Positions 1 to 4,165 of a stretch of 64,000 bases of DNA are shown piece after piece. The number at the start of each line of letters is the position of its first letter. The stretch's first letter is position 1. The stretch is from Brevundimonas albigilva (GTDB lineage Bacteria > Pseudomonadota > Alphaproteobacteria > Caulobacterales > Caulobacteraceae): contig NZ_CP097298.1 in the NCBI RefSeq assembly GCF_023503965.1, positions 1,691,001 to 1,755,000 on the forward strand, written 5' to 3'. The position numbers and the translations under genes are program-made. Below the pieces are notes generated by a model. It ran no database searches. It saw only the letters and a program-made list of their open reading frames with translations, and had not been told where the DNA came from.

Positions 1-158
<158 letters not shown>

Positions 159-277: not shown

Positions 278-1045
278 ATGGCTGACACGACCATCGAATG
301 GACGGATGCGACTTGGAACCCGGTCGCGGGCTGCTTGGTGATTACACCGGGCTGCACCAACTGTTACGCCATGCGCATGGCGGCGCGTTTGGAGGCGATG
401 GGGGTGCCCAAGTATGAAGGGCTGACCCGTAAGAGCGGCGACCGCTATGTGTGGACAGGTAAGGTTCGCCTGGACGAAGCTTCGCTCGAAATTCCGCTGA
501 AATGGCGGAGGCCACGCAAGATTTTCGTCAACTCGATGTCGGACCTCTTCCACCCGGATGTCCCGCCGGAGTTCGTCGAGCGTGTTTGGGAGGTGATGGC
601 GAAGACCCCTCAGCACACCTACCAAATCCTTACCAAACGGCCTGAGCGGATGAGGCAGGTCGTCACCGACCTCGCGTTGCCGGCACTACCTCACGTGTGG
701 CTGGGTACCAGCGTCGAAGACAGTCGCGTTCTTTCGCGACTGGACGACCTACGCGCAACACCGGCGATTATCCGCTTCGTTTCCTTCGAACCGTTGATCG
801 GATCCGTGGCGAAAGCGAACCTCGACGGAATCCACTGGGCCATCGTTGGCGGCGAGTCTGGTCCGAGAGCACGCCCAATGGCGGAACAGTGGGTCGATGA
901 AATTCGACTCGCTTGCCTAGGTGCGGGGGCAGCATTCTTTTTTAAACAATGGGGCGGGAGGAACAAGAAGGCTGCAGGGCGCCTTCTCCATGGGCGAGAA
1001 TGGAACAACCTTCCATTGCAAAGCTCTGCTATACTGGCTGAATGA
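278..1045 (+). CDS. Phage Gp37/Gp68 (DUF5131) family three-Cys-motif protein
   Basis: The 255 aa protein has the family hallmark near its N-terminus: WNPVAGC followed by a C19-x6-C26-x2-C29 cluster ending in CYA. It also has IFVNSMSDLFH, ILTKRPERM, WLGTSVE, FVSFEPL and a C-terminal FFFKQWGG block, all typical of Gp37/Gp68 proteins. The cysteine cluster and overall layout resemble radical-SAM enzymes, but no reaction is known to me for this family. Its stop overlaps the start of the next gene by 4 nt (ATGA), so the two are translationally coupled. Base composition is lower in GC than the flanking core genes, which suggests horizontal acquisition. Confidence 0.88.
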   Translation: MADTTIEWTDATWNPVAGCLVITPGCTNCYAMRMAARLEAMGVPKYEGLTRKSGDRYVWTGKVRLDEASLEIPLKWRRPRKIFVNSMSDLFHPDVPPEFVERVWEVMAKTPQHTYQILTKRPERMRQVVTDLALPALPHVWLGTSVEDSRVLSRLDDLRATPAIIRFVSFEPLIGSVAKANLDGIHWAIVGGESGPRARPMAEQWVDEIRLACLGAGAAFFFKQWGGRNKKAAGRLLHGREWNNLPLQSSAILAE

Positions 1046-1935
1046 GCGAAGAATCAGATTTGGCCGAAGTCGGCCCATGGGCCGAGCAGAAGTTGGCCGC
1101 TTTGGCCTCCTATCTGAATTACTACACGACGGTGCTCAAGAATCAGGTTTGGTGCAGAACGATCTATCTCGATGCGTTTGCAGGAGGTGGAAAGGCGAGC
1201 CTCCGTAGCGTAACTAAACACCCGTTAGTTGAAACGCCGCTTTGGGATGACGAGCGCCCGGCAGAGCACACTCAGATTGTTGTAGGCAGCCCAAGAAGGG
1301 CTTTGGATCTCGCAAACCCGTTCGACCGATACGTGTTTGTGGACGCTGACCCAAAGCGGGTGAGCCAACTTTATCACCTGCAAAGTGAGTACGAGGGGAG
1401 GCGTCGGATCGATGTTCGGCAGGGGAGCGCGGAAGATCAAATTACTTGGCTTCTGAAGCAGAACATCTCCAAGACAACGCATCGCGGCGTGGCGTTTCTC
1501 GACCCGTTCGGCGCTCATTTGCCATGGACCTCGGTTCAGGCGCTGGCGGCCACTAGGATATTCGAAGCGATCATCAACTTTCCGCTGCATATGTGCATCA
1601 ATCGGCTCGCCACGTTGAATCCCGCCATCCCATCAAACTGGCGGGATCAGCTCGACAGTTTCTTTGGGCCGGGGTGGTACGATGAGGTTTACGAAACCAC
1701 CGAGGGCTTGTTCGGCGCAGCGACTAGGAAGAGGGCTGACGCAACCGATCGACTTCTCCGATTTTATCGAGCAAACCTAAAAAACGCATTCGGTCATGTC
1801 TCTCAACCTATGCTTATTCGAAATACGAGAGGTAGCCCACTGTACTACATCATCTGGGCGGGCCCTCACCGTAAAGGGTTAGAGGGAGCGGATTACGTCC
1901 TAAAGACAGGGGAACGCTTACAGAAGCGAGCATGA
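1042..1935 (+). CDS. tcmP: Three-Cys-motif partner protein TcmP
   Basis: The 297 aa protein fits the TcmP family, which is known mainly as the neighbour of Gp37/Gp68 three-Cys proteins, exactly as found here. Visible blocks are YLDAFAGGG (residues 42-50), FVDADP (99-104) and LDPFGAHLPW (153-162). They sit where a class I SAM methyltransferase has its glycine loop, acidic motif II and catalytic motif IV, so a methyltransferase-like fold is a reasonable inference. The function is unestablished. The ATG overlaps the upstream stop, and the end overlaps a further small ORF. The gene is relatively AT-rich and reads through without a break. Confidence 0.85.
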   Translation: MSEESDLAEVGPWAEQKLAALASYLNYYTTVLKNQVWCRTIYLDAFAGGGKASLRSVTKHPLVETPLWDDERPAEHTQIVVGSPRRALDLANPFDRYVFVDADPKRVSQLYHLQSEYEGRRRIDVRQGSAEDQITWLLKQNISKTTHRGVAFLDPFGAHLPWTSVQALAATRIFEAIINFPLHMCINRLATLNPAIPSNWRDQLDSFFGPGWYDEVYETTEGLFGAATRKRADATDRLLRFYRANLKNAFGHVSQPMLIRNTRGSPLYYIIWAGPHRKGLEGADYVLKTGERLQKRA

Positions 1936-2102
1936 TGCCCACCCTCGTCCTCCTCGCCGGGCCTAACGGCCGCGCGGGGGAGATGGCCAAGAACGGCACG
2001 CGCGAAGAGAAGTCCGGCAAGTTCCTGCCGCCGCCCGGCTGGAAGGGGCGTCTGGTCGCCGCCGACGACGCGCCGCGCGCGCTGAGGAAGACGCGGGCCT
2101 GA
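1932..2102 (+). CDS. Tiny ORF coupled to TcmP, possible remnant of a P-loop (zeta-toxin-like) gene
   Basis: A 56-codon ORF starts at an ATG that overlaps the TcmP stop by 4 nt (ATGA), with a second in-frame ATG at 1935. The first residues, PTLVLLAGPNG, resemble the beginning of zeta-toxin or AAA-type P-loop proteins, where AGKS/T would follow. Here the lysine and serine of the P-loop are lost and the ORF continues with an unrelated basic stretch (KSGKFLPPPGWKGRL) before stopping. I read it as either a degraded kinase-like gene after an internal deletion or a small real third member of the cassette. The low-GC composition ends within this ORF. Confidence 0.35.
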   Translation: MMPTLVLLAGPNGRAGEMAKNGTREEKSGKFLPPPGWKGRLVAADDAPRALRKTRA

Positions 2103-2273
2103 CTTTCGTCATCCTCCGGCAAGCCGCGCAGCGGCGCGGACCGGGGGACCCAGCGGCGCGCGGGAGCGCGAACCTGTCGCGGACTCGGCGGCCGACGGTC
2201 GTGCGGCGGACATATCGCCTTCGGCGCCGCTGGGTCCCCCGGTCTCGCTGCGCGAGCCGGAGGATGACGAAAG
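2103..2273. repeat. Dispersed palindromic repeat, copy 1
   Basis: A 171 bp element whose ends are inverted repeats of each other (CTTTCGTCATCCTCCGG at the left, its complement at 2257-2273). A second internal pair carries GGGGGACCCAGCGGCG. The same element occurs in opposite orientation at 3282-3453 and aligns along its whole length with scattered differences. It resembles a non-coding MITE or REP-like repeat; no transposase is present. Confidence 0.75.
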
Positions 2274-2429
2274 AGGGAAGGCGAGGCCTCTGCCATCCTA
2301 ATTCCGCCACCCCGCCCTCTGAATTCCCTCGCCTTTCCGCCGCCGCGCGCCAATCGACCTAACACCCCTCCCGGCCGTCCCATAATGCCCCGGCCCCGCG
2401 CGTGGGGCGGATCGGCGTCGGAGGGGCGC

Positions 2430-3274
2430 ATGGAACGGGATGAGGATCGCCGGCCGGGCTGCGGGCCCGATGACGCGGGATCGGGCTGGGACGACGGCCG
2501 GGCGCCCTATGACTATTGGGACGGCCGCCTGACCAATGAGGACTTCGTCGACCGCCCCCGAAACGAGGGATCTTGCGACGAGGGATTCAGCGACGACCCG
2601 CCCCGCCCCGACGCGCCCCGCGACCCCGCGCGCCCCCTCTACGACGGGCGGCCCGTGCGCGATCCCTATGACCGGGGCGGCGGCTATCGCCGCGTGTCCG
2701 AGGCGGCGTGGGCGCGGGCGCGGGAGGAATATCTGCAGGGCGAGTCCTGCCCGACCGTGTGCGCCCGCCACGGCATGGCCGAGTCCACCTTCCGCCAGCG
2801 CGCCAAGGCCGGGGTTGGCGCCGCATCGACCAGCCCGATCCCGAGCCGGTCGACCTGGACGCCGAGGAGGAGGCGGGCCTGCTGGACTACGCCCAGATGG
2901 CGCGCCACGCCCTGGTGCGGCTGAACCGCGCCGTCCTGCGCGGCCGGGTCGCCGAGGCCGCCGGCTGGATGCGGCTGCACACGCGCCTTTCGGACCTGGC
3001 CCGCGCCGCCGATGGAACGCCGCCCGCGCCGAAACCCGCTCCGAAACCTGCGAAGACCCCCGACCCCCAGGCGACCGCGATGGCCAAGGCCCGCACCGTC
3101 CAGACCCTGGTCCGCGCCGTCGCCGACCTGGACCCGGCGGACCCGACCGGCCGCCGCCTGATCGACAAGAGCCTGGAGGTGCTGGACGCCCTGGAGCGGG
3201 CGCCGATTTCAGACGATTCACTCTATTCAGACGGTGGTTTTCCGGACGCGGAGCCTGAAACCGGCCCGCCGTGA
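2430..3274 (+). CDS. Hypothetical protein with helix-turn-helix segment (frameshifted)
   Basis: The gene starts at an ATG at 2430 preceded by a GGAGGGG ribosome-binding site and needs one missing base at 2811-2814 (a G run) to stay in frame, giving about 281 aa. The N-terminal ~90 residues are acidic and low-complexity (D, R, P, G). Residues ~90-130 (AWARAREEYLQGE...CARHGMAESTFRQRAKA.GWRR) look like a resolvase- or terminase-small-subunit-type helix-turn-helix. The C-terminal half is helical and alanine- and proline-rich. I do not recognise the family. It is bracketed by inverted copies of one repeat. Confidence 0.55.
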
Positions 3275-3281
3275 TTTCCTT

Positions 3282-3453
3282 CTTTCGTCATTCCGGGCGA
3301 AGCGCAGCGGAGACCCGGAACCCAGCGGCGCCGAAGGCGAAATCTATCCGTCGCGTGATGTCTGAAGGCCTGATCTGCGACAGGTTCGCGCTCTCGCGCG
3401 CCGCTGGGTCCCCGGTCTTCGCCGCTGCGCGGCTTGCCGGAGGATGACAAAAG
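3282..3453. repeat. Dispersed palindromic repeat, copy 2 (inverted relative to copy 1)
   Basis: The 172 bp element begins CTTTCGTCATTCCGGG and ends CCGGAGGATGACAAAAG. Read in reverse complement it aligns end to end with the element at 2103-2273, including the shared GCGCGAACCTGTCGC and GAAGGCGAA-type segments. It fills the gap between the HTH hypothetical and the convergent DsbA-family gene, and its folded transcript could act as a bidirectional transcription stop. Confidence 0.75.
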
Positions 3454-3472
3454 AGGATGACGAAGGGAGAGC

Positions 3473-4165
3473 CTACGCCTCCTTGGCGATCTGGCGCAGC
3501 GCCTGTTCGAACGCCTCGGCCGGCTGGCCGCCGCTGATCAGATACTTGCCCTCCACCACCACGGCGGGGACTGAGTTGATGCCCCGCGACCGCCACAGCT
3601 GCTCGGCCTGGCGCACCGCCTGGGCGTAGCGGCCGGACGCCAGCACCTCGGCCGCCTCGGCCCGGTCCAGCCCCGCGGCCTCGGCCGCCTGGGTCAGGAC
3701 GCCGGCGTCGGTCAGGTTGCGGTTGTCGGTGAAGTGGGCGGTGAACAGCGCCCGCTTCAGCGCCTTCTGCTTGTCCGGCGCTGTCTCGTGCGCCCAGTGC
3801 AGCAGGCGGTGGGCGTCGAAGGTGTTCCAGATGCGGCTTGTCTCGCCCATCCGCATGTCGAAGCCCGCTTCCGCCGCGCGGGCCTTGATCATCTCGCGGT
3901 TGGCGGCGGACTGTTCGGGGGTCGAGCCGTACTTGCGGCCGATGTGTTCGACGATCCCCTCGCCCTCGGGCGCCATGTCGGGGTTCAGCTCGAACGGCTG
4001 GAAGGCGATGTCGGCGGCGATCCCCTCGGGCTCCAGCCGCTCCAGCGCCGTCTCCAGCCCGCCCAGCCCCACCACGCACCAGGGGCAGACGACGTCGGAG
4101 ACGAAGTCGATCTTCAGGGTCTTGAGCGGGGCGGGGGTCGAGGTCTGGGGGGCGGTGTCGGTCAT
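3473..4165 (-). CDS. DsbA family oxidoreductase (FrnE-like)
   Basis: The 230 aa protein has a thioredoxin-fold CPWC motif in SDVVCPWCVVG near residue 28. It also has the FELNPDM segment typical of FrnE-type proteins and the cis-proline region GINSVPAVVVEGKYLISGGQ near the C-terminus. FrnE-like proteins are cytosolic DsbA relatives that lack the periplasmic signal; none is visible here. The substrate is unknown and a polyketide-type role should not be assumed. It is convergent with the HTH hypothetical and reads uninterrupted. Confidence 0.9.
   Translation of the reverse strand: MTDTAPQTSTPAPLKTLKIDFVSDVVCPWCVVGLGGLETALERLEPEGIAADIAFQPFELNPDMAPEGEGIVEHIGRKYGSTPEQSAANREMIKARAAEAGFDMRMGETSRIWNTFDAHRLLHWAHETAPDKQKALKRALFTAHFTDNRNLTDAGVLTQAAEAAGLDRAEAAEVLASGRYAQAVRQAEQLWRSRGINSVPAVVVEGKYLISGGQPAEAFEQALRQIAKEA

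What the first reader, a model, noticed from the sequence alone, without database searches (positions are those of the whole stretch)
278..2102. Lower-GC three-Cys/TcmP cassette with a coupled third ORF, inserted after thiC
A Gp37/Gp68 three-Cys protein (C19-x6-C26-x2-C29) and a TcmP partner with methyltransferase-like blocks (DAFAGGG, VDADP, LDPFG) overlap by ATGA. TcmP overlaps a further mini-ORF the same way. The segment is visibly less GC-rich than the core genes, reads without frame breaks, and sits alone between housekeeping DNA and a repeat. The pair is known only as a phage-linked, unassigned two-component module. The radical-SAM-like cysteines plus a SAM-methyltransferase-like partner suggest a two-enzyme modification system, perhaps for nucleic acid or phage defence. 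That last step is inference.
Basis: partly seen in the sequence, partly recalled or inferred. Interest (0 to 1): 0.75.

Follow-up and report, generated by a model that had tools for sequence, protein, structure and literature searches.

The report
Swappable two-enzyme phage-defence candidate cassette
A bacterium carries a two-gene cassette for two enzymes that probably modify nucleic acid, sitting in a spot just after the thiC gene where related bacteria swap antiviral-type genes in and out; the gene pair was already a listed but untested phage-defence candidate.

Summary
The gene pair is real: DUF5131 (278-1045) and TcmP (1042-1935) match both parts of PADLOC's untested phage-defence candidate PDC-M41 and form the lowest-GC stretch of that length in the window. 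The "third ORF" is a scar: the start of a resident zeta-toxin-like gene fused to the end of a small resident ORF. The thiC-dsbA gap is a cargo hotspot: 52 of 53 inspected thiC 3' ends carry a low-GC insert, and 14 of 20 sampled inserts without the pair match defence models (retron, PtuA, BstA, HEC). Predicted folds: DUF5131 is radical-SAM-like (best match spore photoproduct lyase, then viperin); TcmP is nearest the rRNA m6A methyltransferase RlmJ, with RlmJ's catalytic Asp and probably its Lys invariant. TcmP lies within 300 bp in 73 of the 80 closest DUF5131 loci and in 35 of 49 fetched from the genus and order. DUF5131 is conserved and TcmP exchanged: of 196 locus pairs with DUF5131 at least 75% identical, 101 have TcmP below 40%. 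One of the two closest TcmP relatives found lies beside the phage-defence gene hna. Most likely a mobile two-enzyme nucleic-acid-modifying defence module; activity, substrate and protection are unshown.

The parts
1..158 (+). 3' end of thiC (left flank; stop 156-158)
   Evidence: Pfam ThiC_Rad_SAM at G000:C1:1689599-1691032
278..1045 (+). DUF5131 (Gp37/Gp68, PDC-M41B): predicted radical-SAM-like enzyme, conserved partner
   Evidence: Pfam PF07505 1.1e-95; PADLOC PDC-M41B 1.5e-103; model pLDDT 90.2; best fold match spore photoproduct lyase
1042..1935 (+). TcmP (PDC-M41A): predicted RlmJ-like class I SAM methyltransferase, variable partner
   Evidence: TIGR04474 1.1e-49, 169.7 bits against cut-off 53; PDC-M41A 7e-63; model pLDDT 91.5; RlmJ fold E 8e-9, profile E 1.3e-4
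1932..2102 (+). 'third ORF': scar of a resident zeta-like kinase start fused to the end of the next small resident ORF; not a cassette gene
2120..2275 (.). palindromic repeat with copies in many genomes of the genus; inverted copy at about 3280-3455
2385..3274 (+). HTH-like gene, frame broken near 2808 relative to an intact 296-aa relative (L029)
   Evidence: HTH_23 at E 0.04 only, below cut-off
3473..4165 (-). DsbA/FrnE-like gene that closes the hotspot interval (name recalled from the sequence, no family search made)

Best explanation
A two-gene anti-phage candidate cassette (PADLOC PDC-M41) that was swapped, probably by homologous recombination through the flanking genes, into a hotspot between thiC and dsbA. 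DUF5131 works like a radical-SAM enzyme and is the conserved catalytic engine. TcmP works like the SAM methyltransferase RlmJ and is the fast-changing partner that sets the target. Together they most likely modify a base in phage (or infected-host) RNA or DNA in two SAM-dependent steps, methyl transfer by TcmP and radical chemistry by DUF5131, so that phage growth stops. Shown by computation: the gene pair, the hotspot, the predicted folds, conserved residues, partner exchange and the scar. Inferred: enzymatic activity, the nucleic-acid substrate, the order of steps, the route of transfer, and phage defence.
For: Both PADLOC PDC-M41 components hit. Hotspot: of 53 thiC 3' ends examined, 50 have an ORF of at least 100 aa with GC below 0.62 in the insert, two more (L033, L142) have inserts of GC 0.46 and 0.51, and L118 has none; 14 of 20 sampled inserts match PADLOC at E<=1e-5, 11 of 20 at E<=1e-20. 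Second thiC 3' fragments beside cargo in G126 and G154 are slightly closer to another species' thiC than to their own. TcmP within 300 bp in 73 of the 80 closest DUF5131 loci. ORFs within 3 kb match 102 PADLOC families, ORFs beyond 5.2 kb match 8 (108 ORFs each). One of the two closest relatives found of the window TcmP (53%) lies 78 bp from the helicase gene that I take to be hna (PMC12445080 passages). DUF5131 fold: spore photoproduct lyase Z 13.0, viperin-like enzyme Z 11.7. TcmP: RlmJ E 8e-9, profile 1.3e-4, hhalign 1.4e-6; K17, Y24, D154 in 69 of 69, and RlmJ K18 and D164 are essential (PMC3814359 passages). Partner exchange: 101 of 196 locus pairs; five loci have two TcmPs within 300 bp of one DUF5131.
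Against: No experiment on the pair was seen in the listings searched. PDC systems are mostly unvalidated candidates (PMC12988326 and PMC10855318 passages). DUF5131: Pfam gave no Radical_SAM hit, the spacing is CX6CX2C, only one PDB chain reached Foldseek E<=0.001, with TM about 0.5, and unrelated TIM barrels reach Z 9. TcmP: motif IV is mostly DP[FY]G (32 of 69) or DQxG (18 of 69), not DPPY; in the VIA list RlmJ ties with many methyltransferases; the K17 = K18 match lies outside the profile alignments. DUF5131 also occurs without TcmP: 7 of the 80 closest loci, 14 of 49 in genus and order including 9 of 21 genus copies, 8 of 10 phage loci. The other equally close TcmP relative (L165, 52%) has no hna match in its locus, and hna alone is reported to suffice for protection (PMC12445080). 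6 of 20 hotspot inserts had no PADLOC hit.
Confidence: 0.55

Rival explanations
1. Toxin-eraser pair: TcmP is a toxic methyltransferase acting on host or phage nucleic acid and DUF5131, with a fold like a direct-reversal DNA repair enzyme, removes the mark; solo phage DUF5131 would be borrowed antidotes.
For: Best fold match is spore photoproduct lyase, a direct-reversal enzyme (function recalled); DUF5131 is conserved while TcmP varies; DUF5131 occurs without TcmP in phages; one DUF5131 can stand beside two TcmPs.
Against: Convergent and reversed gene orders are unusual for toxin-antitoxin pairs (recalled); many solo phage and prophage-type proteins have another motif at 84-89, so they are not simple copies.
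Confidence: 0.17
2. Viperin-like small-molecule defence: DUF5131 and TcmP modify free nucleotides into chain terminators or signals.
For: Viperin-like enzymes are the next fold matches, Z 11.7 and below.
Against: Spore photoproduct lyase ranks higher; TcmP's sequence and fold relative is a nucleic-acid methyltransferase.
Confidence: 0.1
3. Not defence: a mobile or prophage-derived DNA/RNA maintenance pair that travels with mobile elements.
For: Found on plasmids, in an integrase-linked island and in temperate phages; no test seen.
Against: Shares its insertion site with many unrelated defence-type genes; close neighbours match far more PADLOC models than distant ones.
Confidence: 0.13
4. A thiamine-linked function, because the pair follows thiC.
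For: Pairs lie next to thiC in G000, G015, G026, G126, G134, in two other families of the order (L242, L044) and in a Porphyrobacter MAG (L168).
Against: 16 of 21 genus DUF5131 copies were not seen next to thiC; the same site holds unrelated cargo in most genomes inspected.
Confidence: 0.03

Closest known systems
PADLOC candidate PDC-M41 (and sister PDC-M30)
   Same: Both components match (M41A 7e-63, M41B 1.5e-103); the larger TcmP relatives match PDC-M30A.
   Different: PDCs are HMM candidates; no mechanism was seen in the passages read; the source preprint (Payne 2024) was seen only in reference lists.
NCBIfam TIGR04474 TcmP and TIGR04471 radical SAM mobile pair protein A
   Same: TcmP far above cut-off; DUF5131 resembles TIGR04471.
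   Different: DUF5131 scores 68.1 bits against a TIGR04471 cut-off of 355.
E. coli RlmJ (23S rRNA m6A2030 methyltransferase)
   Same: Fold, DxxAG and GSP blocks, Asp of the DP motif, probable motif X Lys.
   Different: Lacks the second Pro of DPPY; RlmJ's helical-subdomain stretch is an insertion in the alignment; different gene context. Not filed as an RlmJ.
Spore photoproduct lyase and viperin (radical SAM)
   Same: Best fold matches of DUF5131, Z 13.0 and 11.7.
   Different: CX6CX2C spacing; no PDB sequence hit for the DUF5131 profile; usual TcmP neighbour.
Prophage defence genes beside the immunity repressor of Gordonia phage CarolAnn (gp43/gp44, PMC6426606 passages)
   Same: PantheRoc carries DUF5131 and TcmP in the integrase-repressor interval.
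   Different: CarolAnn gp43/gp44 are described as a RexAB-like pair with a membrane protein.

Membership tests
PADLOC PDC-M41 | adjacent M41A and M41B components | tested here: met
   overlapping genes
PADLOC PDC-M41 | protects against phage | not testable with these tools
   needs an experiment; none seen in the listings searched
Pfam DUF5131 (PF07505) | score above gathering cut-off | tested here: met
   320.3 against 28.9 bits
NCBIfam TcmP (TIGR04474) | score above curated cut-off | tested here: met
   169.7 against 53 bits
NCBIfam radical SAM mobile pair protein A (TIGR04471) | score above curated cut-off | tested here: not met
   68.1 against 355 bits
Radical SAM superfamily (DUF5131) | radical-SAM barrel fold | tested here: met
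   predicted model only: spore photoproduct lyase Z 13.0 (2.9 A, 193 residues), viperin-like 11.7, LipA 11.0, RlmN 10.7; unrelated barrels at about 9
Radical SAM superfamily (DUF5131) | Pfam Radical_SAM sequence match | tested here: not met
   only DUF5131 and sub-cut-off GP88 at E<=1
Radical SAM superfamily (DUF5131) | canonical CX3CX2C spacing | tested here: not met
   CX6CX2C, each Cys in 72 of 72; other spacings exist in known members (recalled). Hence described as radical-SAM-like, not filed as a member
Radical SAM superfamily (DUF5131) | [4Fe-4S] cluster and SAM cleavage | not testable with these tools
   needs protein
RlmJ (TcmP) | catalytic Asp of motif IV | tested here: met
   D154 in 69 of 69, aligned to the Asp of RlmJ's DP motif
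RlmJ (TcmP) | DPPY motif IV | tested here: not met
   mostly DP[FY]G or DQxG
RlmJ (TcmP) | catalytic Lys18 of motif X | tested here: inconclusive
   K17 in 69 of 69, in helix 13-32; KH as in RlmJ in 28 of 69; outside the profile alignment
Spore photoproduct lyase (DUF5131) | sequence membership | tested here: inconclusive
   fold match only; no PDB sequence hit for the profile
Viperin | viperin-specific substrate motifs | not tested
   fold match only
Defence-hotspot cargo | unrelated defence-type cargo at the same site in relatives | tested here: met
   14 of 20 sampled sites; 53 sites inspected

The most novel reading that the evidence does not exclude
A new kind of immune modification system: one conserved radical-SAM enzyme (spore-photoproduct-lyase-like) serves interchangeable, fast-evolving RlmJ-like methyltransferases that choose the nucleic-acid target, so that a methylated base is turned by radical chemistry into a lethal or blocking hypermodification in phage RNA or DNA.
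Probability: 0.3. Interest if true: 0.82.

Novelty: new member of a known kind. Interest (0 to 1): 0.56.

Why it matters
The pair was found from proteobacteria and actinobacteria to an archaeal MAG, and no published function was seen in the papers searched. The data give it a testable chemistry (radical-SAM-like enzyme plus RlmJ-like methyltransferase), name residues to mutate, and show which partner is exchanged. They also expose a compact site after thiC where close relatives swap defence-type genes, which can be mined for further systems.

Tried and rejected
Third ORF as a cassette gene: rejected. Thiamine link: rejected, since the site holds unrelated cargo and most genus copies were not seen beside thiC. 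Phage-only origin: rejected; among fetched loci the closest TcmPs are on a plasmid or in bacterial genomes; the window TcmP finds 2 of 50,697 phage records, and a divergent phage TcmP finds 3 records of two further phages, so undercounts. Structured RNA or tRNA: no Rfam hit at gathering score, no tRNA or tmRNA in the window. Single-sequence PDB search: nothing meaningful. Viral fold library for TcmP: methyltransferases of many kinds, none recognisable as TcmP. Promoter and terminator scan: no signal above shuffles. Origin of the Pfam name GMT-wHTH: one paper search, no explanation in the listing. Literature for a thiC hotspot: one search, nothing relevant among the 10 papers listed of 620. One search listed 40 of 395 papers, most of them on other meanings of the acronym; PMC7387457, which names a three-Cys-motif partner, was not opened.

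Rows dropped or mixed: searches used a mis-framed thiC query, so their thiC ends are wrong; one search replaces them. One search listed 47 matches but gave 30 loci at most. Alignment A1 (74 of 84 low-GC ORFs of at least 100 aa) left out ten DUF5131 or TcmP ORFs but kept one TcmP (L061) and two ORFs of native type from L044. The 20 proteins are the longest low-GC ORF of the first 20 sites in list order without the pair; L033 was passed over because no ORF was picked there. The near/far census used 36 of 42 eligible loci to stay under the residue limit, counts families and not proteins, and its near ORFs are longer in total (57,060 against 44,092 residues for the 42 loci). A4 used 68 of 76 TcmP hits plus the window; A5 used 71 of 80 DUF5131 ORFs plus the window. 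The 53 thiC sites: the window, seven from the DNA search, five because they hold the pair (one from another family), and 40 from the thiC list, picked mostly for contig continuity.

Full report
What is there. Two overlapping genes lie at 278-1045 and 1042-1935. The first is DUF5131 (Pfam 1.1e-95; PADLOC PDC-M41B 1.5e-103). The second is TcmP (TIGR04474, 169.7 bits against a cut-off of 53; PDC-M41A 7e-63). The pair is thus already catalogued as a phage-defence candidate. GC of 278-1935 is 0.566, below all 312 windows of that length.

The third ORF. Bases 1935-1970 are the start of a gene that in L128 encodes a zeta-toxin-like P-loop kinase (Pfam AAA_33 5.8e-15, Zeta_toxin 1.2e-12). Bases 1969-2107 are the end of the small ORF that follows it. 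About 516 bp present in L135 are missing between them, and L110 shows one contiguous match across the same join. One or both genes were matched at 23 of 53 sites, the window included, so I call them resident. The TcmP stop overlaps the resident start as TGATG, so the coupling is a junction effect and the ORF a scar.

The site. In the unnamed genus (131 genomes searched), thiC was found in 117 and DUF5131 in 20, with 21 copies. I inspected 53 thiC 3' ends, 52 of this genus. In 50 the stretch after the thiC stop holds an ORF of at least 100 aa with GC below 0.62; in L033 and L142 it has GC 0.46 and 0.51 without a picked ORF; L118 has no low-GC insert. Six of the 53 hold the DUF5131/TcmP pair, the window included. 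In the longest insert ORF of 20 sites without the pair, 14 match PADLOC at E<=1e-5 and 11 at E<=1e-20: PD-Lambda-5, an Argonaute model, a CBASS-type HNH effector, HEC-07, retron NDT, AriA/PtuA, PDC-S59, BstA, HEC-01A, retron RT-protease, PtuA; six match nothing. For comparison, 108 ORFs far from DUF5131 loci matched 8 PADLOC families at E<=1e-10. Pfam on the wider set adds RVT_1, GmrSD_N, AbiJ, Abi_C, DarT, AIPR and Schlafen domains. In G126 and G154 a second thiC 3' fragment lies beside the cargo and is slightly closer to another species' thiC (95.7 against 93.3%, and 89.4 against 87.7%), which fits arrival with donor flanks. The pair sits here in G000, G015, G026, G126 and G134 (5 of 21 genus DUF5131 copies), and also after thiC in two other families of the order (L242, L044) and in a Porphyrobacter MAG (L168). 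The genus name is not given by any search; Brevundimonas is a guess.

The module. A scan of species genomes gave 569 confirmed DUF5131 relatives, of which the best 80 were kept; 73 of these have TcmP within 300 bp, in convergent (26), same-strand downstream (25) or same-strand upstream (22) order; seven do not. Of 49 loci fetched from the genus and order, 35 are paired; in the genus 12 of 21 copies are. In the whole order search, 45 of 299 genomes have DUF5131. ORFs within 3 kb match 102 PADLOC families at E<=1e-10, ORFs beyond 5.2 kb match 8 (108 ORFs each, 36 loci); families overlap, so these are not protein counts. Over the 108 paired loci, 196 locus pairs have DUF5131 at least 75% identical; TcmP is below 40% (identity times coverage) in 101 of these and at least 75% in 21. 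The window's DUF5131 is 80-82% identical to six genus copies whose TcmPs are 0-29% identical to its own, three of them convergent. Five loci have two TcmPs within 300 bp of one DUF5131. Locus pairs are not independent, so these are descriptive counts. All 108 paired DUF5131 have VNSM[SG]D at 84-89. Of 22 unpaired ones checked, 5 have VNSM, 10 V[CA]AH and 5 CASLAD; the seven unpaired loci also have VNSM. Pairing therefore goes with VNSM, but VNSM does not prove pairing.

Context elsewhere. The two closest relatives found of the window TcmP are on S. meliloti 1021 pSymA (53.0%) and in L165 (52.4%). On pSymA it stands beside a second, larger TcmP, DUF5131 and, 78 bp away, an 845-aa helicase (PDC-S28). 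The record carries no annotation; I identify the helicase as SMa2245 hna and the TcmP as SMa2243 from PMC12445080, whose table lists both (passages). That paper states, citing earlier work, that hna alone restores phage resistance, so the TcmP is not needed for it. L165 has the same DUF5131, two TcmPs and a 334-aa ORF, but no hna match. The host's own second copy is an island with a phage-type integrase, DUF5131 and two TcmPs. Two Gordonia phages, PantheRoc and BaxterFox, carry a TcmP beside the immunity repressor; the DUF5131 partner was confirmed in PantheRoc. Gordonia phage CarolAnn has unrelated defence genes co-expressed with its repressor (PMC6426606 passages). In P. aeruginosa the sister candidate PDC-M30 was predicted in 32 strains, 68.8% of them resistant; the passage gives no test (PMC10855318).

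Enzymes. The DUF5131 model (pLDDT 90.2) matches spore photoproduct lyase best (Foldseek E 3.2e-4, TM 0.49, the only match at E<=0.001; Z 13.0 over 193 residues), then viperin-like enzymes (Z 11.7), LipA and RlmN; unrelated barrels start at about Z 9. Aligned ranges (model 1-224, chain 71-341) place C19-C29 about where the lyase's cluster cysteines lie (their numbers are recalled). Pfam found no Radical_SAM match, so I call it radical-SAM-like. The TcmP model (pLDDT 91.5) matches RlmJ best in Foldseek (E 8e-9), ties with Trm1, RlmCD and others in VIA (Z about 15), and its profile finds RlmJ by sequence (E 1.3e-4; hhalign 1.4e-6). K17, Y24 and D154 are invariant in 69 of 69 TcmPs; RlmJ needs K18 and D164 (PMC3814359 passages). 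D154 aligns with the Asp of RlmJ's DP motif directly; K17 with K18 is by position. Motif IV is not DPPY, so TcmP is RlmJ-like, not an RlmJ.

Judgement. Defence cargo is the best reading of the context; nucleic-acid modification is the best reading of the folds; the join of the two is inference. A toxin-eraser arrangement is the strongest rival. As a kind, the cassette is a further member of an existing candidate family.

Noticed in passing
thiC 3' ends in L029-L035 and L103-L142: The thiC-dsbA gap acts as a defence-gene hotspot with differing 1-3 gene low-GC inserts; in six of 20 sampled sites the longest insert ORF matches no PADLOC model and could belong to new systems (L030, L035, L103, L108, L113, L115).
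   Followed up: partly
window 2385-3274: HTH-like gene is split in two frames near 2808, whereas L029 has an intact 296-aa ORF.
   Followed up: partly
window 2120-2275 and 3280-3455: Palindromic repeat with copies in many genomes of the genus, here as an inverted pair around the HTH-like gene.
   Followed up: no
L004 5807-11435 (own genome, C1:2270806-2276434): Second island: phage-type integrase, unknown 325-aa ORF, TcmP, DUF5131 and a divergent second TcmP.
   Followed up: partly
L224 5852-6856 and L004 6974-7951: Related 325-334 aa proteins stand near DUF5131/TcmP in five loci (L224, L004, L165, L174, L160); the two tested, from L224 and L004, have no Pfam or PADLOC hit.
   Followed up: partly
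DUF5131 residues 84-89: VNSM[SG]D in 108 of 108 TcmP-paired proteins; of 22 unpaired ones checked, 10 have V[CA]AH, 5 CASLAD and 5 VNSM, and seven further unpaired loci also have VNSM.
   Followed up: partly
L251 2001-3733 (Gordonia phage PantheRoc): Convergent DUF5131/TcmP pair between integrase and immunity repressor; nearly the same TcmP is in BaxterFox.
   Followed up: partly
G114:C1:59393-60829: thiC in this one-contig genome is reported in three pieces, as if frame-broken.
   Followed up: no
L113, L120, L124; L063, L124, L132: Duplicated 3' ends of dsbA (first three) and of thiC (last three) beside hotspot cargo.
   Followed up: partly
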